A stretch of 64,000 nt of DNA from Deuterostichococcus epilithicus (Eukaryota; Chlorophyta; Trebouxiophyceae; Prasiolales; Stichococcaceae), in NCBI GenBank assembly GCA_033439295.1, contig JAVTLE010000013.1, positions 372,001 through 436,000 of the forward strand. The letters are read 5' to 3'. Positions 5,346-64,000 of this stretch are shown here, piece by piece (positions within the stretch are counted from its first letter, which is position 1; each line of letters starts with the position of its first letter). The notes beneath the pieces were generated by a model. The model saw only the letters and a list, made by a program, of their open reading frames with translations, searched no databases and had not been told where the DNA came from. Both the position numbers and the translations under genes were made by a program.

Positions 5346-6828
5346 CTGCAAATCGAGGCCATCATTACAGCTTGCTTTGCTGTAGCGCATGTCGCGAACC
5401 GTGGCCATCGCCTGTGGATGTGATCATGGGGGTGACAAATGGGCTTGTCGTGCTGACACGCACCGCCGAGCGCAGCTGCGAGCGTGCCCACATTCACCAT
5501 TGGCCATCGCCTGTGGATGTGATCGTGGCGTGACAAATGGGCTCATCGTGCTGAGACGCACCGCCGAGCGCAGCTGCGACTGTGCCCACGTTCACCATTG
5601 ACTTCTTCTTCCCACCGCGGCCGGTCCCTGGAATGGCGCCGCAGCGCCAGTACAGGTGAACCCCGTCTCGGCACTTGTCGATGTGCCAATGCTGGGTCGC
5701 AGTACTGCTGTTTGGCTCGGCTTCAGTCTGATGTTCTGAGAGGAGATTGCGCGAGGACCGAAATACAGTATTGAAGGGTCCCACTGTTTGAGGCGTTTGT
5801 ACAGCAACGGCCAAATTATGATTGCGAGGGTGCGATTGCACAGTGATGACGATTGCTGCTCTCTCTGTCGAGCAGTGACCTTCAATTCGCTTACTACACA
5901 CAACAGTGCTTTCTAGGGGTGTGGAACCGTTCTCGACATTGCAGCTGCAGACCAGGCCCCGCTATGACTAAGGGCCAGCTGGCAATCAGGGTTTTTCGAA
6001 ACGGTTGTTCGGCAGCGGACCGCAATGCAATCAAATCGCCAGAGTCGCAGCAAGCCGCACCATGACCGCTAGCGTTTTGGAATCGGCTGGTAACTTAGAT
6101 GCTGGACGCGGCAGCTAGGGACAGCAAACTCGGGGACTGTTTTGACGGCACGATCTGGCATCTCCCCCAACAGGCTTGAAATCCAGACCGCCCTCCTACC
6201 GCTAGCGCAACGGTGTCGATGTGCCTTTAGGTGAGGCTGCACCTTATCGGTTGTCTGCGCAGCGCCGCAAAGACTGTCGAACTGCTTCTCACAACGGCAA
6301 ACTTCGGGCGGTAGCGCATGCTGATATGGCAGCCGCAGACCTATGCTGCTGTCCTTTGTAGCACGGATCTGCGTCTTTACAGGCAAACGCATGTGAAGCG
6401 CCCACGCGGCAGGCCCGTGGCCGTAAGGGTTACCTTCTGGATTCTGGCTTCGGAACATTGTTGAGTCGGTTGACTCATGAATTCAGCAGTGGCCGCATCT
6501 TTCTGGCGGCACCTTGCCTTGTTTGCCCCATACTTCGCGATTGCATCGAAAACGCTCGATTTGCGGACTTGGAGATCAGCGGATACCAACTCCTGGTGCG
6601 GCCGCAGCAATCCCCCGCCTGCGACCAAGCTGTGTTGTCTCAAGCAGTGTTAAAGACCGGTGTTCCAGTCGGCAGTCAACGGTCACAACAGGGAGACCTG
6701 GTTGATGCTGCCAACAGGGTGTGCCAGCACTCCATCCTGCCGACGTATCTGGCTGATCCGCCTGAGTCAGCTTGCGTGTTTGCAGGGCCGGGTGGGTCTT
6801 GGACATCTGCAACCTCGGGGGAGGGAGC
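5346..6828. other. Region between gene 2 and the inhibitor gene; hidden first exon and divergent promoters expected
   Basis: The minus-strand gene to the left still lacks its first exon and the plus-strand inhibitor gene starts at 6829, so this 1.5 kb should hold that exon, its intron (with the 99-bp duplication) and two divergent promoters. I translated all frames and found no short ATG exon ending in phase 1 that looked credible. Confidence 0.4.
5402..5599. repeat. 99-bp tandem duplication (two copies)
   Basis: The segment starting TGGCCATCGCCTGTGG at 5402 recurs at 5501, a period of 99 bp, with only a handful of differences across the unit. It lies just upstream of the second-visible boundary of the unknown minus-strand gene, probably in its first intron. 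Confidence 0.85.
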
Positions 6829-51824: not shown

Positions 51825-54800
51825 ATGGCGGCCGGAGCCTGGACGAGGCTTCTGGCCTGCCTGCTACTTGCTGCGGCGGCACACACGGTGCTGGCAGCCT
51901 TCAGCGGCGGCGCCGGCGGCGGCCCCCCCAGCGGCACCTCCAGCGGCACTGAGCTCGGATTGCCAGCCGGCAGGGTCCTACTGCAGGAAGTCCGAACCTT
52001 CCAGGTGCGCTGCGTCCTGGCGCTGGTCCCATGGTCCATGGCATGTTCACACAAACGTTGGCGCCACCTGCGAAGCCACATTCTGGTGCTGGCTGCGCGC
52101 CGCTCGCTGGGTTGGCAGCGCAAACAGCGCAATATGATGTGAAACATCAAAGCTGACAACATCAACACACCGGCACATGGCGGATGTAAAGTGTCGGCAA
52201 GCTGCCCCTTTTGTCATGCAGGCCCGAGAAGGTGTGCTGGTGACGACAGACAACGCCCGCCTCGTACCGAAGCCTCAGGTCACGAAGACTCCGGGCACGG
52301 TGATCTACACCGCCAAGTGGCAGCAGTACAAGGTTCGCTGGCTCGCCGCAGCACCGCATTGAATCTCGGCCAGCTGCTCAGTGCAGGGGAAGCGCCGGCT
52401 TGGGTCCGCTGGACTGGCGTGCGTGTTGACTGCGCAAGCTGCACAGCACGTGCTGCAATGATGATCCGGTCTGCTACATGCGTGTGCATGACATCATGGC
52501 TGATTATGCTGGCGGTGAGAGGACACACCAGACCGACCGATCTCTCGTGCATGCCACAGCCGGGGAGCACCCTCATCAAATGTTACTACGGCGAGAAGCG
52601 GCTGCCAAGCAAAACCTTCCTGCAGGTGCGCTGCATAATCACATCTAGCAAATGCTGTTGTGCCGATGTCACCTGCCCTGCTGCAACCTCCTGTGGGGCG
52701 CCATACAACTTCGAGCCGTGCCGAGCATGCATGCTGCTAGCTCTCCACGAAGGACATGACCTGCATGAGGAAAGCGATTGACAACTCGCTGCTGGCCGGT
52801 GCCCTGATGCAGGCGCGAAGCACTGTTCCGCCATTCAAAAAGGCCTCGGGCTGGGTGACCGTGCCTGGTGACGTCAAGCGCATCAACTTTACAACACCCC
52901 TGGTGCACCCCCCCCTCCCCNCNCNCTTTTTCGCGCCACAGGATAGAGGCTTTCCCACCTCGATGACATTCCTACACATGGGCATGGCTGCAATCCAATA
53001 TCATATCAACACTCTAAGCACCAGCGCATTCAACATTGCACACACGCTCTGCTGCAAAGCTCATCAGTGACCGATAATCCCCGGCATTTAAATCTCGTGC
53101 CGGCTGCCCTGCAGCCATCGCGCGTGTGTGCCACACGTCCGCGCAGGAATGTGCGGCAGAACTACCCACAGCGGGGCGGCATCTGCTGCAAGGTCAGCGT
53201 CCGAACCCGCCTCCTCAGCAGACTTGACGCAAATTGCATGCACCACTTGCAAGAGCATAATGCAAGGCTGTGGAGTCTTTCATGCCACCTTGAGGGTTCT
53301 GGCACCTTGAGCCTGACTTGTGTGACGCCAGGCTGGACGGTATTGCGGCAAGGCTGCTGGGCATCTCAAATTCTTCCAGACAGGTGCGGGGCCTTTTGGC
53401 ACTCATGCCGGCGACAGCTCGTGCTGTCATTGCACAGGGATCCTCAGCCAGGCAGTGCACCACACAGGCGATTTCTGGCCTCGATCTGAAGGCAGTCAAA
53501 CTGTCTGTTCTGCTGCAGTAACAGAGATGTGTCCTGTTGCAGACCTGCGGGTCACCACACTTCCTGACACCTGCTTGCTGCGGATCAACTCGAAAAACGT
53601 TGGAGCCCAGGTGAGCGCCTTGCTCGCCGAGTCACTACCCCCCCCCATCCTTGCACAGGAAGTGGTGTCAAGCGCCGGGAACCAGCATCTAGCCTTCAAC
53701 GCTGCTGGGCCATGGACCAGGAGGTTTATGTCGAGACGCAGGTGTTCATCTCAAACAGCGCCGGCACTGGCCCAGTCCAGGGCGGCTACGCTGGACTCTT
53801 CACCTCCTTCGTGGGTGTCATTAACCTGCGCAACTTCGTCAAGCCCGGCTTCAACCGCCTCGCTGTCACCACCGTGAACAACAAGTGCCAGTCCAAGGAG
53901 GTGGGTTCATCTGGATCAGACTGTCCAGGGCTCAGGGGCTGCTCGCCAGCAGCCTGCAGTCTTGGTGACAATCTGGCGTGGCGCCACAGGCTGTGCGAGT
54001 CCTCCAGCGTCCGGCAATCCCACATTATGTATTGCTGGTTGCAGATCATATTCATTGCGCGGCTGGAGTGCCGCAAGGGGCCTGCTACGACCCCCAAGCC
54101 GACCAAACAGCCAACTCGGAGACCCACCAAGCAGCCAACCAAGCGGCCCACCAAACGGCCCACTGCCCAGGCCAACCCTAACGAGACGCCGACTATCCCT
54201 GGCTTGACAATGGCGCCCACGGCCGCTCCGACCGCTCCGACCTCTGCGCCGTCCAGTGCGCCGACAACTCGCCCCACTTTTGCGCCAATCGGCAGCATCT
54301 TCGCCATCCCAACTGCAGCACCCACGACAGCGCCGACCGACGCGCCGACCGCCACACCCTCGACAGGAACGCCAACAGCGACGCCGACGTTTGCCCCTTC
54401 GCCCCTTGGCACCACCGCTTCGACGAGCGCACCCACGGTTTCACCGACGAGTGCACCGGCTGGCACCCCGACAGGTTCACCAACGGATGCGCCCTCCGGC
54501 GCACCCACGGCTTCGCCAACGAATGCGCCGGCCGGCACCCCGACCGCGGCGCCTACCAATGCGCCCACCAGCGCACCCACGGCTTCACCGACGAGTGCAC
54601 CGGCCGGCACCCCGACAGGTTCACCAACGGATGCGCCCTCCGGCGCACCCACGGCTTCGCCAACGAATGCGCCAGCTGGCACCCCAACAGCGATGCCCAC
54701 CAGTGCGCCCACCAGCTCACCCTCGGCCGCGCCAACGAATGCACCGGCCGGCACCCCGACAGCGGCGCCTACCAATGCGCCCACCAGCGCACCCACGGCT

Positions 54801-57800
54801 TCACCGACGAGTGCACCGGCCGGCACCCCGACAGGTTCACCAACGGATGCGCCCTCCGGCGCACCCACAGCTTCGCCAACGAATGCGCCAGCTGGCACCC
54901 CAACAGCGACGCCTACCAGTGCGCCCACCAGCGCACCCTCGGCCGCGCCAACGAATGCACCGGCCGGCACCCCGACAGCGGCGCCTACCAATGCGCCCAC
55001 CAGCGCACCCACGGCTTCACCGACGAATGCGCCGGCCGGCACTCCGACTGCAACGCCTACCAATGCGCCCACCAGCGCACCCACGGCTTCACCGACAAAT
55101 GCACCGGCCGGCACCCCGACAGCGGCGCCTACCAATGCGCCCACCAGCGCACCCACGGCTTCACCGACGAGTGCACCGGCCGGCACCCCGACAGGTTCAC
55201 CAACGGATGCACCCTCCGGCGCACCCACGGCTTCGCCGACGAATGCGCCAGCTGGCACCCCAACAGCGACGCCTACCAGTGCGCCCACCAGCGCACCCAC
55301 AGCTTCACCGACGAGTGCACCGGCTGGAACCCCGACTGCAACGCCTACCAATGCGCCCACCAGCGCACCCACGGCTTCACCGACGAGTGCACCGGCCGGC
55401 ACCCCGACAGGTTCACCAACGGATGCACCCTCCGGCGCACCCACGGCTTCGCCAACGAATGCGCCAGCTGGCGCCCCAACAGCGACGCCTACCAGTGCGC
55501 CCACCAGCGCACCCACAGCTTCACCGACGAGTGCACCGGCTGGAACCCCGACTGCAACGCCTACCAATGCGCCCACCAGCGCACCCACGGCTTCACCGAC
55601 GAATGCGCCGGCCGGCACTCCGACCGCGGCGCCTACCAATGCGCCCACCAGCGCACCCACGGCTTCACCGACGAATGCACCGGCTGGAACCCCGACCGCG
55701 GCGCCTTTTAACGCGCCCACTAGCGCACCCACTGCTGCACCAACAAATGCACCGGCCAGTTCCCCAACAGCGGCGCCGACAAATGCGCCCACACCTACCC
55801 CCGCCACCTGCCCCTCCGGCGGCACCATAAACACCTTCGAGCAGGACACGGTACGAGTCCTTTGACTGTGGCTTCTGCTTCCACGATGCTGCTTACAGGC
55901 TGCCGTGCAGATGTGGTGGTCTGCAACACAGCACGGAGTGAAGTATGCAATGACAGCCATCGGACGCGTGCACCGGCATGACACTTGTTGCATGCGTGAC
56001 GTGCAGCTGGGCAACCTCCTCAAGCTGGCGCCCATCACTCTGGGCGGCGTCACCCCGGCACTGGGCGTGCCGCCGCTCAACCTCGTCAACTTGCTGGGCC
56101 CCCAGTTCGTCGGTGCGCGCACATTCTGCAGTGCTCTGCACTGTTCCACAAGACTACATAATGCAGTGGTCTATGCCGCTTTGAGTGTCTGGTCCAGCTG
56201 CCAGCCTGGTTGCCGGTGCGCTCTGATGGGGGCTGACCTCCAGCCTGCGCTGTGTACAGGCTTCAGCATCGGCGACTTCACCAACTCTGACAATGCCGCC
56301 TTCAAGGTGAGGGAGCTGGCAACCTGCTCATGGACATTCGTCCTGTAGTCAATCTGAGCGAGCCTGACCTCAGTATCGGATGGCTCCGCTTTCACCCAAC
56401 ACATGAAACAAGTGTAACGCCACCTGGACCCGATCTCATTGGTGTGCTACCGCAGAGCGCGGTGGTGTCTCCCAACAACGCCATCTTCAACCTGGCGGGC
56501 CTGTCAGGGCTGCCCACCATTGCGCCGCTGCTCAACAACGTGCTCTCGCTGAGCCCCTTCCAGCTGAACAGCCTGTACATTTCCCCCATCTTCGCTGACA
56601 GCCAGGTCATCACCTTCACTCCCTACACCGGAGGTGAGCGATGCAGCTCCAATGGTGTGTGCCGTCAGGTGGCTGAGTGGCGGCGGTTTCTCAATGCACA
56701 TTCCGGTTGAGGCTTCAAACCATGACTCACCACTACTCTCTCGTATGCGCCGCAGCGGTGCTGGGGCAGCTGACCGGCGCGGGCACGCCGCTGAGGGTGA
56801 CCGTCACCAAGGCTGCAGGGCCAACTCTGGTCGTCTTCCCATCAGCCGACTTTGGCAGCATCGCCGGCGTGACCATCAGCGCAGTCGGCACCGGCCAGGT
56901 GGAAAGAGTGGTTTCTTCATCGATGCTTGAACGATGCACCTGCTGGGCGCATTCCACTGGCCTGCTGCAATGCAACGGCACATCCATTCCAGCCAACTGC
57001 AGTGCCGGGCGCCGCTGCTAAGGACTCTGTTGTGTGTGCCCACTGCAGGCCAGCTCGCTGCTTGCAGGCCTGACACTTGCACAGGCAAGTCAACACTCCA
57101 GCCGCCATGCTTGCTGCTGAAGCACTGCCAAGAGCTTGAACATGATCCAGAGGCTCGTTGTGTGTCTCGCTGACCCTGTAATGCGATGAAGCTGACGCAT
57201 GTGGGTTTCTCGGTCCGACGTGGCTACCCTTTGCTGCCTCTTGCAGTTTGCCATCGATAACGTGTGCCTGTCGACGGGGCCTGTGACGCCCACTGGCCCA
57301 ACAGCCGCGCCAACGGCAGCGCCAACAACCCCCACTCTGGCGCCTACAAAGGCGCCCGCTGGAACTCCGACCACAGCGCCAACAGCCTCACCGACTGGTG
57401 CACCGACCACTGCGCCTACAGTCGCGCCCAGCACACCGACTGCCGCGCCGTCCGTCATTCCTGCCACCTGCCCCTCCGGCGGCACCATAAACACCTTCGA
57501 GCAGGACACGGTACGAGTCCCTTGACTGTGGCTTCTGCTTCCACGATGCTGCTTACAGGCTGCCGTGCAGATGTGGTGGTCTGCAACACAGCACGGAGTG
57601 AAGTATGCAATGACAGCCATCGGACGCGTGCACCGGCATGACACTTGTTGCATGCGTGACGTGCAGCTGGGCAACCTCCTCAAGCTGGCGCCCATCACTC
57701 TGGGCGGCGTCACCCCGGCACTGGGCGTGCCGCCGCTCAACCTCGTCAACTTGCTGGGCCCCCAGTTCGTCGGTGCGCGCACATTCTGCAGTGCTCTGCA

Positions 57801-60800
57801 CTGTTCCACAAGACTACATACTGCAGTGGTCTATGCCGCTTTGAGTGTCTGGTCCAGCTGCCAGCCTGGTTGCCGGTGCGCTCTGATGGGGGCTGACCTC
57901 CAGCCTGCGCTGTGTACAGGCTTCAGCATCGGCGACTTCACCAACTCTGACAATGCCGCCTTCAAGGTGAGGGAGCTGGCAACCTGCTCATGGACATTCG
58001 TCCTGTAGTCAATCTGAGCGAGCCTGACCTCAGTATCGGATGGCTCCGCTTTCACCCAACACATGAAACAAGTGTAACGCCACCTGGACCCGATCTCATT
58101 GGTGTGCTACCGCAGAGCGCGGTGGTGTCTCCCAACAACGCCATCTTCAACCTGGCGGGCCTGTCGGGGCTGCCCACCATTGCGCCGCTGCTCAACAACG
58201 TGCTCTCGCTGAGCCCCTTCCAGCTGAACAGCCTGTACATTTCCCCCATCTTCGCTGACAGCCAGGTCATCACCTTCACTCCCTACACCGGAGGTGAGCG
58301 ATGCAGCTCCAATGGTGTGTGCCGTCAGGTGGCTGAGTGGCGGCGGTTTCTCAATGCACATTCCGGTTGAGGCTTCAAACCATGACTCACCACTACTCTC
58401 TCGTATGCGCCGCAGCGGTGCTGGGGCAGCTGACCGGCGCGGGCACGCCGCTGAGGGTGACCGTCACCAAGGCTGCGGGGCCAACTCTGGTCGTCTTCCC
58501 ATCAGCCGACTTTGGCAGCATCGCCGGCGTGACCATCAGCGCCGTCGGCACCGGCCAGGTGGAAAGAGTGGTTTCTTCATCGATGCTTGAACGATGCACC
58601 TGCTGGGCGCATTCCACTGGCCTGCTGCAATGCAACGGCACATCCATTCCAGCCAACTGCAGTGCCGGGCGCCGCTGCTAAGGACTCTGTTGTGTGTGCC
58701 CACTGCAGGCCAGCTCGCTGCTTGCAGGCCTGACACTTGCACAGGCAAGTCAACACTCCAGCCGCCATGCTTGCTGCTGAAGCACTGCCAAGAGCTTGAA
58801 CATGATCCAGAGGCTCGTTGTGTGTCTCGCTGACCCTGTAATGCGATGAAGCTGACGCATGTGGGTTTCTCGGTCCGACGTGGCTACCCTTTGCTGCCTC
58901 TTGCAGTTTGCCATCGATAACGTGTGCCTGTCGACGGGGCCTGTGACGCCCACTGGCCCAACAGCCGCGCCAACGGCAGCGCCAACAACCCCCACTCTGG
59001 CGCCTACAAAGGCGCCCGCTGGAACTCCGACCACAGCGCCAACAGCCTCACCGACTGGTGCACCGACCACTGCGCCTACAGTCGCGCCCAGCACACCGAC
59101 TGCCGCGCCGTCCGTCATTCCTGCCACCTGCCCCTCCGGCGGCACCATAAACACCTTCGAGCAGGACACGGTACGAGTCCCTTGACTGTGGCTTCTGCTT
59201 CCACGATGCTGCTTACAGGCTGCCGTGCAGATGTGGTGGTCTGCAACACAGCACGGAGTGAAGTATGCAATGACAGCCATCGGACGCGTGCACCGGCATG
59301 ACACTTGTTGCATGCGTGACGTGCAGCTGGGCAACCTCCTCAAGCTGGCGCCCATCACTCTGGGCGGCGTCACCCCGGCACTGGGCGTGCCGCCGCTCAA
59401 CCTCGTCAACTTGCTGGGCCCCCAGTTCGTCGGTGCGCGCACATTCTGCAGTGCTCTGCACTGTTCCACAAGACTACATACTGCAGTGGTCTATGCCGCT
59501 TTGAGTGTCTGGTCCAGCTGCCAGCCTGGTTGCCGGTGTGCTCTGATGGAGGCTGACCTCCAGCCTGCGCTGTGCACAGGCTTCAGCATCGGCGACTTCA
59601 CCAACTCTGACAATGCCGCCTTCAAGGTGGGAGCTGGCAACCTGCTCATGGACATTCGTCCTGTAGTCAATCTGAGCGAGCCTGACCTCAGTATCGGATG
59701 GTTCCGCTTTCACCCAACACATGAAACAAGTGTAACGCCACCTGGACCCGATCTCATTGGTGTGCTACCGCAGAGCGCGGTGGTGTCTCCCAACAACGCC
59801 ATCTTCAACCTGGCAGGCCTGTCGGGGCTGCCCACCATTGCGCCGCTGCTCAACAACGTGCTCTCGCTGAGCCCCTTCCAGCTGAACAGCCTGTACATTT
59901 CCCCCATCTTCGCTGACAGCCAGGTCATCACCTTCACTCCCTACACCGGAGGTGAGCGATGCAGCTCCAATGGTGTGTGCCGTCAGGTGGCTGAGTGGCG
60001 GCGGTTTCTCAATGCACATTCCGGTTGAGGCTTCAAACCTCTTGACTCACCACTACTCTCGTATGCGCCGCAGCGGTGCTGGGGCAGCTGACCGGCGCGG
60101 GCACGCCGCTGCGGGTGACCGTCACCAAGGCTGCGGGGCCAACTCTGGTCGTCTTCCCATCAGCCGACTTTGGCAGCATCGCCGGCGTGACCATCAGCGC
60201 CGTCGGCACCGGCCAGGTGGAAAGAGTGGTTTCTTCATCGATGCTTGAACGATGCACCTGCTGGGCGCATTCCACTGGCCTGCTGCAATGCAACGGCACA
60301 TCCATTCCAGCCAACTGCAGTGCCGGGCGCCGCTGCTAAGGACTCTGTTGTGTGTGCCCACTGCAGGCCAGCTCGCTGCTTGCAGGCCTGACACTTGCAC
60401 AGGCAAGTCAACACTCCAGCCGCCATGCTTGCTGCTGAAGCACTGCCAAGAGCTTGAACATGATCCAGAGGCTCGTTGTGTGTCTCGCTGACCCTGTAAT
60501 GCGATGAAGCTGACGCATGTGGGTTTCTCGGTCCGACGTGGCTACCCTTTGCTGCCTCTTGCAGTTTGCCATCGATAACGTGTGCCTGTCGACGGGGCCT
60601 GTGACGCCCACTGGCCCAACAGCCGCGCCAACGGCAGCGCCAACAACCCCCACTCTGGCGCCTACAAAGGCGCCCGCTGGAACTCCGACCACAGCGCCAA
60701 CAGCCTCACCGACTGGTGCACCGACCACTGCGCCTACAGTCGCGCCCAGCACACCGACTGCCGCGCCGTCCGTCATTCCTGCCACCTGCCCCTCCGGCGG

Positions 60801-63800
60801 CACCATAAACACCTTCGAGCAGGACACGGTACGAGTCCCTTGACTGTGGCTTCTGCTTCCACGATGCTGCTTACAGGCTGCCGTGCAGATGTGGTGGTCT
60901 GCAACACAGCACGGAGTGAAGTATGCAATGACAGCCATCGGACGCGTGCACCGGCATGACACTTGTTGCATGCGTGACGTGCAGCTGGGCAACCTCCTCA
61001 AGCTGGCGCCCATCACTCTGGGCGGCGTCACCCCGGCACTGGGCGTGCCGCCGCTCAACCTCGTCAACTTGCTGGGCCCCCAGTTCGTCGGTGCGCGCAC
61101 ATTCTGCAGTGCTCTGCACTGTTCCACAAGACTACATACTGCAGTGGTCTATGCCGCTTTGAGTGTCTGGTCCAGCTACCAGCCTGGTTGCCGGTGTGCT
61201 CTGATGGAGGCTGACCTCCAGCCTGCGCTGTGCACAGGCTTCAGCATCGGCGACTTCACCAACTCTGACAATGCCGCCTTCAAGGTGGGAGCTGGCAACC
61301 TGCTCATGGACATTCGTCCTGTAGTCAATCTGAGCGAGCCTGACCTCAGTATCGGATGGCTCCGCTTTCACCCAACACATGAAACAAGTGTAACGCCACC
61401 TGGACCCGATCTCATTGGTGTGCTACCGCAGAGCGCGGTGGTGTCTCCCAACAACGCCATCTTCAACCTGGCGGGCCTGTCGGGGCTGCCCACCATTGCG
61501 CCGCTGCTCAACAACGTGCTCTCGCTGAGCCCCTTCCAGCTGAACAGCCTGTACATTTCCCCCATCTTCGCTGACAGCCAGGTCATCACCTTCACTCCCT
61601 ACACCGGAGGTGAGCGATGCAGCTCCAATGGTGTGTGCCGTCAGGTGGCTGAGTGGCGGCGGTTTCTCAATGCACATTCCGGTTGAGGCTTCAAACCATG
61701 ACTCACCACTACTCTCTCGTATGCGCCGCAGCGGTGCTGGGGCAGCTGACCGGCGCGGGCACGCCGCTGAGGGTGACCGTCACCAAGGCTGCGGGGCCAA
61801 CTCTGGTCGTCTTCCCATCAGCCGACTTTGGCAGCATCGCCGGCGTGACCATCAGCGCCGTCGGCACCGGCCAGGTGGAAAGAGTGGTTTCTTCATCGAT
61901 GCTTGAACGATGCACCTGCTGGGCGCATTCCACTGGCCTGCTGCAATGCAACGGCACATCCATTCCAGCCAACTGCAGTGCCGGGCGCCGCTGCTAAGGA
62001 CTCTGTTGTGTGTGCCCACTGCAGGCCAGCTCGCTGCTTGCAGGCCTGACACTTGCACAGGCAAGTCAACACTCCAGCCGCCATGCTTGCTGCTGAAGCA
62101 CTGCCAAGAGCTTGAACATGATCCAGAGGCTCGTTGTGTGTCTCGCTGACCCTGTAATGCGATGAAGCTGACGCATGTGGGTTTCTCGGTCCGACGTGGC
62201 TACCCTTTGCTGCCTCTTGCAGTTTGCCATCGATAACGTGTGCCTGTCGACGGGGCCTGTGACGCCCACTGGCCCAACAGCCGCGCCAACGGCAGCGCCA
62301 ACAACCCCCACTCTGGCGCCTACAAAGGCGCCCGCTGGAACTCCGACCACAGCGCCAACAGCCTCACCGACTGGTGCACCGACCACTGCGCCTACAGTCG
62401 CGCCCAGCACACCGACTGCCGCGCCGTCCGTCATTCCTGCCACCTGCCCCTCCGGCGGCACCATAAACACCTTCGAGCAGGACACGGTACGAGTCCCTTG
62501 ACTGTGGCTTCTGCTTCCACGATGCTGCTTACAGGCTGCCGTGCAGATGTGGTGGTCTGCAACACAGCACGGAGTGAAGTATGCAATGACAGCCATCGGA
62601 CGCGTGCACCGGCATGACACTTGTTGCATGCGTGACGTGCAGCTGGGCAACCTCCTCAAGCTGGCGCCCATCACTCTGGGCGGCGTCACCCCGGCACTGG
62701 GCGTGCCGCCGCTCAACCTCGTCAACTTGCTGGGCCCCCAGTTCGTCGGTGCGCGCACATTCTGCAGTGCTCTGCACTGTTCCACAAGACTACATACTGC
62801 AGTGGTCTATGCCGCTTTGAGTGTCTGGTCCAGCTGCCAGCCTGGTTGCCGGTGTGCTCTGATGGAGGCTGACCTCCAGCCTGCGCTGTGCACAGGCTTC
62901 AGCATCGGCGACTTCACCAACTCTGACAATGCCGCCTTCAAGGTGGGAGCTGGCAACCTGCTCATGGACATTCGTCCTGTAGTCAATCTGAGCGAGCCTG
63001 ACCTCAGTATCGGATGGCTCCGCTTTCACCCAACACATGAAACAAGTGTAACGCCACCTGGACCCGATCTCATTGGTGTGCTACCGCAGAGCGCGGTGGT
63101 GTCTCCCAACAACGCCATCTTCAACCTGGCAGGCCTGTCGGGGCTGCCCACCATTGCGCCGCTGCTCAACAACGTGCTCTCGCTGAGCCCCTTCCAGCTG
63201 AACAGCCTGTACATTTCCCCCATCTTCGCTGACAGCCAGGTCATCGCCTTCACTCCCTACACCGGAGGTGAGCGATGCAGCTCCAATGGTGTGTGCCGTC
63301 AGGTGGCTGAGTGGCGGCGGTTTCTCAATGCACATTCCGGTTGAGGCTTCAAACCATGACTCACCACTACTCTCTCGTATGCGCCGCAGCGGTGCTGGGG
63401 CAGCTGACCGGCGCGGGCACGCCGCTGAGGGTGACCGTCACCAAGGCTGCGGGGCCAGCTCTGGTCGTCTTCCCATCAGCCGACTTTGGCAGCATCGCCG
63501 GCGTGACCATCAGCGCCGTCGGCACCGGCCAGGTGGAAAGAGTGGTTTCTTCATCGATGCTTGAACGATGCACCTGCTGGGCGCATTCCACTGGCCTGCT
63601 GCAATGCAACGGCACCTCCATTCCAGCCAACTGCAGTGCCGGGCGCCGCTGCTAAGGACTCTGTTGTGTGTGCCCACTGCAGGCCAGCTCGCTGCTTGCA
63701 GGCCTGACACTTGCACAGGCAAGTCAACAATCCAGCCGCCATGCTTGCTGCTGAAGCACTGCCAAGAGCTTGAACATGATCCAGAGGCTCGATGTGTGTC

Positions 63801-64000
63801 TCGCTGACCTGCGATGCGATGAAGCTGGCGCATGTGGGTTTCTCGGTCCGACGTAGCTACCCTTTGCTGCCTCTTGCAGTTTGCCATCGACAACGTGTGC
63901 CTGTCGACGGGGCCTGTGACGCCCACTGGCCCAACAGCCGCGCCAACGGCAGCGCCAACAACACCCACTCTGGCGCTCACAAATGCGCCCGCTGGAACTC
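51825..64000 (+). CDS. Giant secreted Pro/Thr-rich protein with tandem 246-residue units (3' end beyond window)
   Basis: Exons before the array: 51825-52004, 52222-52332, 52560-52625, 52741-52902, 52942-53066 (tentative), 53147-53192, 53332-53383, 53438-53610, 53721-53900, 54045-55850 (967 residues, all in phase). Unit exons: 56007-56112, 56260-56306, 56456-56633, 56756-56898, 57247-57510; 57667-57772, 57920-57966, 58116-58293, 58416-58558, 58907-59170; 59327-59432, 59580-59626, 59774-59951, 60074-60216, 60565-60828; 60985-61090, 61238-61284, 61432-61609, 61732-61874, 62223-62486; 62643-62748, 62896-62942, 63090-63267, 63390-63532, 63880 to the edge. Signal peptide (1-25, LLACLLLAAAAHTVLAAF); Cys-containing module to 365 (e.g. 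GGICCKAGRYCGK) not recognised; Pro-Thr stalk to about 955; then repeats beginning CPSGGTINTFEQD and ending FAIDNVCLSTG. The unit pattern recalls beta-sandwich ectodomains of bacterial PEP-CTERM proteins (inference). Likely a cell-wall or surface glycoprotein. Confidence 0.75.
52921..52925. other. Ambiguous bases (N) after a C-run
   Basis: N at 52921, 52923 and 52925 follow a run of C in the intron between exons 4 and 5 of the PT-repeat gene. The exact intron length is unsure, but coding phase is not affected. Confidence 0.9.
54080..55800 (+). repeat. Degenerate 12-bp (4-residue) repeats coding a Pro-Thr stalk
   Basis: Begins with PTKQPTRRPTKQPT and continues as x-x-P-T tetrapeptides such as SAPT, NAPA, GTPT, ASPT for about 570 residues. 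Longer blocks recur: GTPTGSPTDAPSGAPT appears five times (near 54475, 54606, 54834, 55194 and 55408). The composition predicts dense O-glycosylation and an extended rod. The open frame on the other strand here is a by-product of the codon pattern. Confidence 0.92.
55803..57462 (+). repeat. Tandem unit 1 (1,660 bp)
   Basis: First full unit, counted from GCCACCTGCCCCTCCGG. It contains five exon segments and their introns and is nearly identical to unit 2 throughout, including introns. It has the GTGAGGGAG version of the second donor. The Pro-Thr linker at its end (57290-57460) is short, unlike the long stalk before it. Confidence 0.95.
57463..59122 (+). repeat. Tandem unit 2 (1,660 bp)
   Basis: Differs from unit 1 at only a few positions (for example A to C at 57821 in CATACTGCAG, G at 58167 in CTGTCGGGG). 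Same GTGAGGGAG donor as unit 1. Confidence 0.95.
59123..60780 (+). repeat. Tandem unit 3 (1,658 bp)
   Basis: Two bases shorter than units 1-2: the donor context is GTGGGAG instead of GTGAGGGAG near 59626. Private changes include CCTCTTGACTCACC near 60038 and CTGCGGGTG near 60109, and GGCAGGCCTG shared with unit 5. Confidence 0.95.
60781..62438 (+). repeat. Tandem unit 4 (1,658 bp)
   Basis: Has the short GTGGGAG donor context of unit 3. A private change is AGCTACCAGCC near 61174, inside an intron. It keeps GGCGGGCCTG like units 1 and 2. Confidence 0.95.
62439..64000 (+). repeat. Tandem unit 5 (cut by window edge)
   Basis: Same class as units 3 and 4. Private changes include GTCATCGCC near 63241 (Thr to Ala), GCCAGCTCTGG near 63457 (Thr to Ala), and several changes near 63790-63860 that shorten the last intron by one base; the start of its Pro-Thr linker also differs (CTCACAAATGCG). 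Confidence 0.93.

What the first reader, a model, noticed from the sequence alone, without database searches (positions are those of the whole stretch)
55803..64000. Intragenic array of at least five 1.66-kb units with identical introns
Units repeat at 1,660, 1,660, 1,658 and 1,658 bp with only a few differences each. Introns are as conserved as exons, which points to very recent unequal crossing-over or ongoing homogenisation rather than selection on protein. Each unit adds exactly 246 residues in phase, so copy number can vary without breaking the frame, giving a length-variable surface protein.
Basis: seen in the sequence. Interest (0 to 1): 0.76.

Follow-up and report, generated by a model that had tools for sequence, protein, structure and literature searches.

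The report
Five near-identical domain copies in one gene
One gene of what is probably a green alga contains five almost identical head-to-tail copies of a seven-exon block plus an older sixth copy, apparently a recently expanded array in a secreted protein, much like known repeat-containing genes of people and spiders.

Summary
The array is real as assembled: five units at 1660, 1660, 1658 and 1658 bp, exactly five genome-wide by four intron probes. It is one gene: spliced from 54045 to a stop at 65626 (beyond the window), the model reads 2,097 residues with one stop, at the end. Each unit adds 258 residues, not 246: a 36-nt exon before a GC-AG intron was overlooked; the terminal copy carries it fused to the next exon. 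And a sixth, old copy ends the gene: its exons are 70-93% alike, its introns near shuffle level (dN 0.114, dS 0.559). Among units 1-4 exons and introns vary equally (5 of 774, 8 of 882 sites; p 0.59) and the proteins are identical. Best reading: recent tandem duplication or unequal exchange of a unit whose protein was under older purifying selection. Metagenome relatives exist; the domain matches no Pfam, NCBIfam or PDB family convincingly. Parallels: LPA KIV-2, spider silk genes. Copy-number variation and surface location are untested.

The parts
51825..52004 (+). candidate first exon with signal-peptide-like start (provisional 5' model)
   Evidence: ATG and open frame of 60 codons ending at a GT donor, MAAGAWTRLLACLLLAAAAHTVLA...; secretion judged by eye, no predictor run
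52222..53900 (+). candidate N-terminal exons (52222-52332, 52560-52625, 52741-52902, 53147-53192, 53332-53383, 53543-53610, 53659-53900), chosen by eye; two junctions do not join in phase as modelled, both beside C-runs or N
   Evidence: no Pfam match at E 10 to two joined pieces
54045..55850 (+). one long exon: Pro/Thr-rich stretch with a 72-bp (24-residue) minisatellite of 19 copies at 54426-55792, then the start of domain copy 1
   Evidence: 1806 nt, no stop in it; TRF 72 bp x 19.0, 81% matches
55803..57462 (+). unit 1 (1660 bp), 7 coding blocks, 6 introns
   Evidence: exons 55804-55850, 56007-56112, 56260-56306, 56456-56633, 56756-56898, 57049-57084, 57247-57460 as located (first and last are joined across unit borders)
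57463..59122 (+). unit 2 (1660 bp); no private variant
59123..60780 (+). unit 3 (1658 bp); 2-bp deletion at the intron 3 donor, shared with units 4 and 5
60781..62438 (+). unit 4 (1658 bp)
62439..64000 (+). unit 5; homology to the other units runs on to 64085, past the window end; 3' part diverged
   Evidence: the corresponding residues run straight into FAIDNV without an intron in copy 6
63880..64000 (+). start of the last linker exon of unit 5; it leads to copy 6, the terminal domain, which lies outside the window at 64171-65626 (L004:2171-3626)

Best explanation
A single intron-rich nuclear gene, probably of a green alga, encodes a large, probably secreted modular protein: an N-terminal part, a Pro/Thr-rich stretch of somewhat under 590 residues, and six copies of a domain of about 195 residues separated by Pro/Thr-rich linkers. 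SHOWN on the assembly: the five upstream copies are whole-unit DNA duplicates (exons, introns and linker together), in phase, with under 1% substitutions among units 1-4; the sixth copy is older and has kept its protein far better than its introns. INFERRED: pairing between linkers or whole units gave unequal exchange or tandem duplication, which raised the copy number and keeps inner units alike, while array ends (unit 5's 3' part, copy 6) escape. INFERRED: because a unit is 774 coding nt, gain or loss of units keeps the frame, so protein length could vary. INFERRED AND WEAK: the domain is an extracellular binding or structural module, the repeats giving reach or multivalency.
For: Spacing and identity. 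Splice model with 5 of 5 units in phase and identical proteins in units 1-4. Equal exon and intron variation, 5 of 774 and 8 of 882. Four intron probes hit the genome 5 times each, all in this array, reversed controls 0. Continuous spliced frame of 2,097 residues with six domains. Copy 6: six exon blocks 69.9-92.7% identical; introns 61.4-72.6% against means of 60.6-65.2% over 30 shuffles, 4 of 5 introns below their shuffle maximum; dN 0.114, dS 0.559. A relative's ORF (P0003) matches the exon-7 start (off-frame) upstream of linker, exon 1, intron 1 and exon 2.
Against: No reads, RNA or second strain were available, so copy number, splicing and expression are unproven. Unit 2 has no private variant, so a mis-counted array cannot be excluded. 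Intron 5 of copy 6 lies above its shuffle maximum (72.6 against 70.3), so some intron similarity may remain. Two N-terminal junctions do not join in phase as modelled, so the link of the signal-like exon to the array is provisional. No convincing family or structure match supports any function for the domain. The P0003 match is short outside low-complexity linker and had no shuffled control.
Confidence: 0.78

Rival explanations
1. Assembly artefact: one or two real units were mis-joined into five.
For: Units 2 and 4 are identical in exons; unit 2 has no private variant; scattered single N near the gene show imperfect bases.
Against: Units 1, 3, 4 and 5 carry private variants (5, 7, 1 and 37 alignment columns), a block in introns 2-3 separates units 1-2 from 3-5, the array is bounded by two different flanks, and an ORF from elsewhere shows exon-7 to exon-1 order.
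Confidence: 0.15
2. Selection on sequence (protein plus intron function) keeps old units alike, not recent duplication.
For: Proteins of units 1-4 are identical.
Against: Copy 6 has introns near shuffle level (4 of 5 below the shuffle maximum) and no intron 6, yet is spliceable as modelled; only 0 to 5 of about 160 synonymous sites differ between any two of units 1-4.
Confidence: 0.03
3. The introns are a dispersed repeat family (introner-like) that inserted repeatedly.
For: Green algae such as Micromonas are known for repetitive introns (recalled; PMC4815162 seen only in the listing).
Against: The six introns of a unit show no similarity to each other at E 0.1, nor to the rest of the 112-kb region at E 0.01; introns 1, 3 and 6 probed with up to 3 mismatches and intron 4 probed exactly occur only in the array; each intron keeps its place in every unit.
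Confidence: 0.02
4. Five separate tandem genes rather than one.
For: Units are long enough to hold a small gene.
Against: No stop between units in the spliced frame; linkers read through into the next domain. Units were not searched for promoters or starts of their own.
Confidence: 0.02

Closest known systems
[quoted passage not shown]
   Same: Intragenic whole-unit repeat with introns and (nearly) identical copies: 5.6-kb unit with 2 exons spaced by a 4-kb intron, 1 to more than 40 copies per allele (passages of PMC6314250; start of abstract of PMC11462820 in the listing). That it is in phase and secreted is recalled.
   Different: No kringle match here; 7 coding blocks and 6 introns per 1.66-kb unit; copy-number variation is described for LPA and untested here.
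Spider flagelliform and MaSp2 silk genes with homogenised introns
   Same: Repeated coding units with homogenised introns inside one gene; the authors suggest that repetitive introns promote unequal crossing over (passages of PMC9779670).
   Different: Those units are small and dominated by few amino acids (passage); here a domain of about 195 residues plus linker, with six different introns in fixed order.
PT disordered repeat (Pfam PF04886)
   Same: The linkers and the 24-residue minisatellite are Pro/Thr/Ala-rich in the same style; weak match (E 0.43, 10.6 bits) in one unit.
   Different: Below Pfam's cut-off of 26.2 bits, so not a member by that test; describes composition, not function.

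Membership tests
Intragenic multi-exon tandem repeat with homogenised introns (LPA KIV-2-like, spider Flag-like architecture) | Repeat unit includes introns that are as similar as exons | tested here: met
   5 of 774 exon and 8 of 882 intron sites vary in units 1-4, p 0.59; with unit 5, 29 of 772 and 15 of 881, p 0.013, introns the more alike
Intragenic multi-exon tandem repeat with homogenised introns (LPA KIV-2-like, spider Flag-like architecture) | Units are in phase within one reading frame | tested here: met
   774 nt per unit, one stop at the end of 2,098 codons, on a splice model without RNA
Intragenic multi-exon tandem repeat with homogenised introns (LPA KIV-2-like, spider Flag-like architecture) | Copy number varies among individuals | not testable with these tools
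   one assembly only
Apolipoprotein(a) kringle family | Homology to the kringle domain | tested here: not met
   no Pfam match to the domain other than the weak PT row (unit, E up to 1; copy 6, E up to 10)
Introner elements | Similar introns dispersed in many genes | tested here: not met
   probes from introns 1, 3, 4 and 6: 5 matches each, all in the array; introns 2 and 5 not probed
PT disordered repeat PF04886 | Score above Pfam's cut-off (26.2 bits) | tested here: not met
   10.6 bits, one unit tested; the upstream minisatellite was not scanned
Carbohydrate-binding beta-sandwich (jelly roll) domains | Sequence or fold match to a described family | tested here: inconclusive
   no Pfam (other than PT), NCBIfam or PDB sequence match; one PDB row at E 1.1 by profile; no fold was predicted

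The most novel reading that the evidence does not exclude
A live, copy-number-variable array of an undescribed domain, with two nested levers on the length of one secreted protein (258-residue units and a 24-residue minisatellite), and a 36-nt exon with a GC-AG intron that could be skipped in phase to give 246-residue units.
Probability: 0.4. Interest if true: 0.55.

Novelty: new member of a known kind. Interest (0 to 1): 0.38.

Why it matters
It extends to a photosynthetic microbe, probably a green alga, a pattern described for human LPA and spider silk, with an internal clock: five near-identical copies, one old copy and a graded array edge in a single gene. That lets intron and exon divergence, homogenisation and its edge be measured in one place. 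The domain matched no described family in the libraries searched. It remains a known kind of event, and its biological effect is unshown.

Tried and rejected
Rejected: 246 residues per unit. Rejected: separate genes, on the spliced model. Rejected for the four introns probed: dispersed introns. Considered and not upheld: exon-only (cDNA-type) conversion between the array and copy 6. Exons 3-4 have fewer fourfold differences than the rest (8 of 39 against 27 of 67; counts), but p is 0.053 and overall dS of 0.56 with indels may be enough to explain introns near shuffle level; the missing intron 6 in copy 6 may be loss or the older state.

The unit-long DNA search of the own genome missed the array itself, since that tool skips words that are common there, so its silence elsewhere was not used as evidence; its 3 hits match the linker part of the unit on other contigs. 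The species was not identified.

Full report
WHAT WAS CHECKED. The repeat finder shows five copies at 1660, 1660, 1658 and 1658 bp (family D9). The window ends inside unit 5, so five 10-kb stretches of the same contig were fetched (the window is C11:372001-436000 of a 46.8-Mb genome in 21 contigs). Joined to the window, unit 2 as query matches 55803-57460 at 99.7%, 59121-60778 at 99.2%, 60779-62436 at 99.6% and 62437-64085 at 98.1%; beyond that only linker and stretches around exons match, at 81-96%, up to 65318. Four probes from introns 1, 3, 4 and 6 each occur exactly 5 times in the genome, all in this array, and their reversed controls 0 times (the intron 4 probe was 15 bases and exact, the other three allowed 3 mismatches).

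GENE MODEL. Each unit has seven coding blocks and six introns of 156, 147, 149 or 147, 122, 150 and 162 or 161 nt. Introns 1-5 are GT-AG and intron 6 is GC-AG. The coding sum is 774 nt, 258 codons, in 5 of 5 units without a stop. Proteins of units 1-4 are the same. That exon is supported by copy 6, where ASSLLPGLSLAQ runs directly into FAIDNVCLT with no intron. Unit lengths of 1660 and 1658 are not multiples of three, so only splicing keeps the frame. From the long exon at 54045 to the stop at 65626 the model gives 2,098 codons with one stop, at the end, and six domain starts at offsets 588, 846, 1104, 1362, 1620 and 1903: steps of 258 four times, then 283. No RNA was available; splice sites rest on consensus, phase, copy 6 and the relative P0003.

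EXONS AGAINST INTRONS. Units 1-4: 5 of 774 exon sites and 8 of 882 intron sites vary, gap columns left out, p 0.59. All five exon changes are synonymous. With unit 5 the figures are 29 of 772 and 15 of 881, p 0.013, because 33 of 37 unit-5-private columns fall in the last 315 of 1665 columns (intron 6 and linker); over the first 1250 columns they are 7 of 524 and 9 of 720, p 1.0. A block at intron 2-3 joins units 1-2 against 3-5, one column (695) joins units 3 and 5, and unit 2 has no private change. This is the mosaic expected of exchange among units, with an unhomogenised edge; it also means that the count of five is not proven by sequence alone.

THE OLD COPY. Copy 6 (64171-65626) has exon identities to unit 2 of 71.1, 84.9, 89.4, 92.7, 69.9 and 72.3% (exon 6+7), and introns of 65.2, 69.4, 61.4, 61.6 and 72.6% against means of 61.6, 63.3, 61.4, 60.6 and 65.2 over 30 single-base shuffles (only intron 5 exceeds its shuffle maximum, 70.3). 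Over 192 codons dN is 0.114 and dS 0.559, very uneven between exons (dS 0.22 in exon 4, saturated in exon 6). So the protein was under purifying selection over that older span, while the five units are too young to say much.

RELATIVES. Protein searches (3 of 3 used) gave 3 hits for the spliced domain (P0001-P0003; 85, 67 and 64% identity over 31, 31 and 26% of the query), 4 rows for P0003 including itself, the other three Pro/Thr-rich (only the best 7994 candidates scored; two of the three carry Pfam's PT label and the third is Pro/Thr-rich by its letters), and 4 hits for the exon-5 ORF (P0007-P0010, 75-79% identity over 46-53%). The seven domain hits are short ORFs; those compared with the unit run on into intron sequence. 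P0003 from residue 13 on matches the start of exon 7 read off-frame (36 of 76 identical, much of it low-complexity linker; no shuffled control), followed in frame by linker, exon 1, intron 1 and exon 2. This is the best sign that tandem order exists outside this assembly; a frame change inside P0003's linker is unexplained. P0008 stands for two member sequences on one contig, which could be two units; its DNA was not seen. In the own genome the domain was found only here: 18 of 18 matches at E up to 0.001 (29 candidates scored) lie on this gene.

FAMILY AND FUNCTION. No Pfam family at E 10 for copy 6 and two N-terminal pieces, only a weak PT row for one unit at E up to 1, no NCBIfam match, no PDB match by sequence, and one row at E 1.1 by profile. 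By eye the domain has the look of an extracellular beta-sandwich (hydrophobic strands, terminal FAIDNVCL); this is recall, not a test. The 5' model starts with a signal-like sequence at 51825, and the modelled C-terminus ends two residues after FAIDNVCL. Secreted, wall- or matrix-associated is the likeliest reading; membrane anchoring is not indicated. The organism is taken as photosynthetic from 39 matches to the chlorophyll a/b-binding family (one of 14 control genomes, a cyanobacterium, also rings); 'green alga' is inference from that, the introns, genome size and base composition.

KNOWN PARALLELS. KIV-2 of LPA: a 5.6-kb unit with two exons and a 4-kb intron, 1 to more than 40 copies (passages of PMC6314250). 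Spider silk: homogenised introns in flagelliform genes, and MaSp2 genes with two alternating intron types, of which the authors say they know no other example (passages of PMC9779670). Here six different introns recur in fixed order, which follows simply from duplication of a six-intron unit. No algal case was seen in the listings; that is a limited search, read as titles and abstract starts. The event is a new member of a known kind.

Noticed in passing
54426-55792: A 72-bp, 24-residue Pro/Thr-rich minisatellite of 19 copies (81% matches) in the exon just upstream of unit 1, in frame: a second possible source of length variation in the same protein.
   Followed up: partly
59627, 61285, 62943: Units 3-5 share a 2-bp deletion that changes the intron 3 donor from GTGAGG to GTGGGA; splicing efficiency may differ between units.
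   Followed up: no
52902-53147 and 53610-53659: Two 5' exon junctions do not join in phase as modelled; both lie beside C-runs, one with scattered N, so base errors are possible.
   Followed up: partly
L004:2171-3626: The terminal copy lacks intron 6 exactly at the exon 6/7 joint, while the sequence before the exon-7 start in P0003 looks like an intron end (read by eye from its letters).
   Followed up: partly
5402-5600: A 98-bp tandem duplication, 2.0 copies at 91%.
   Followed up: no
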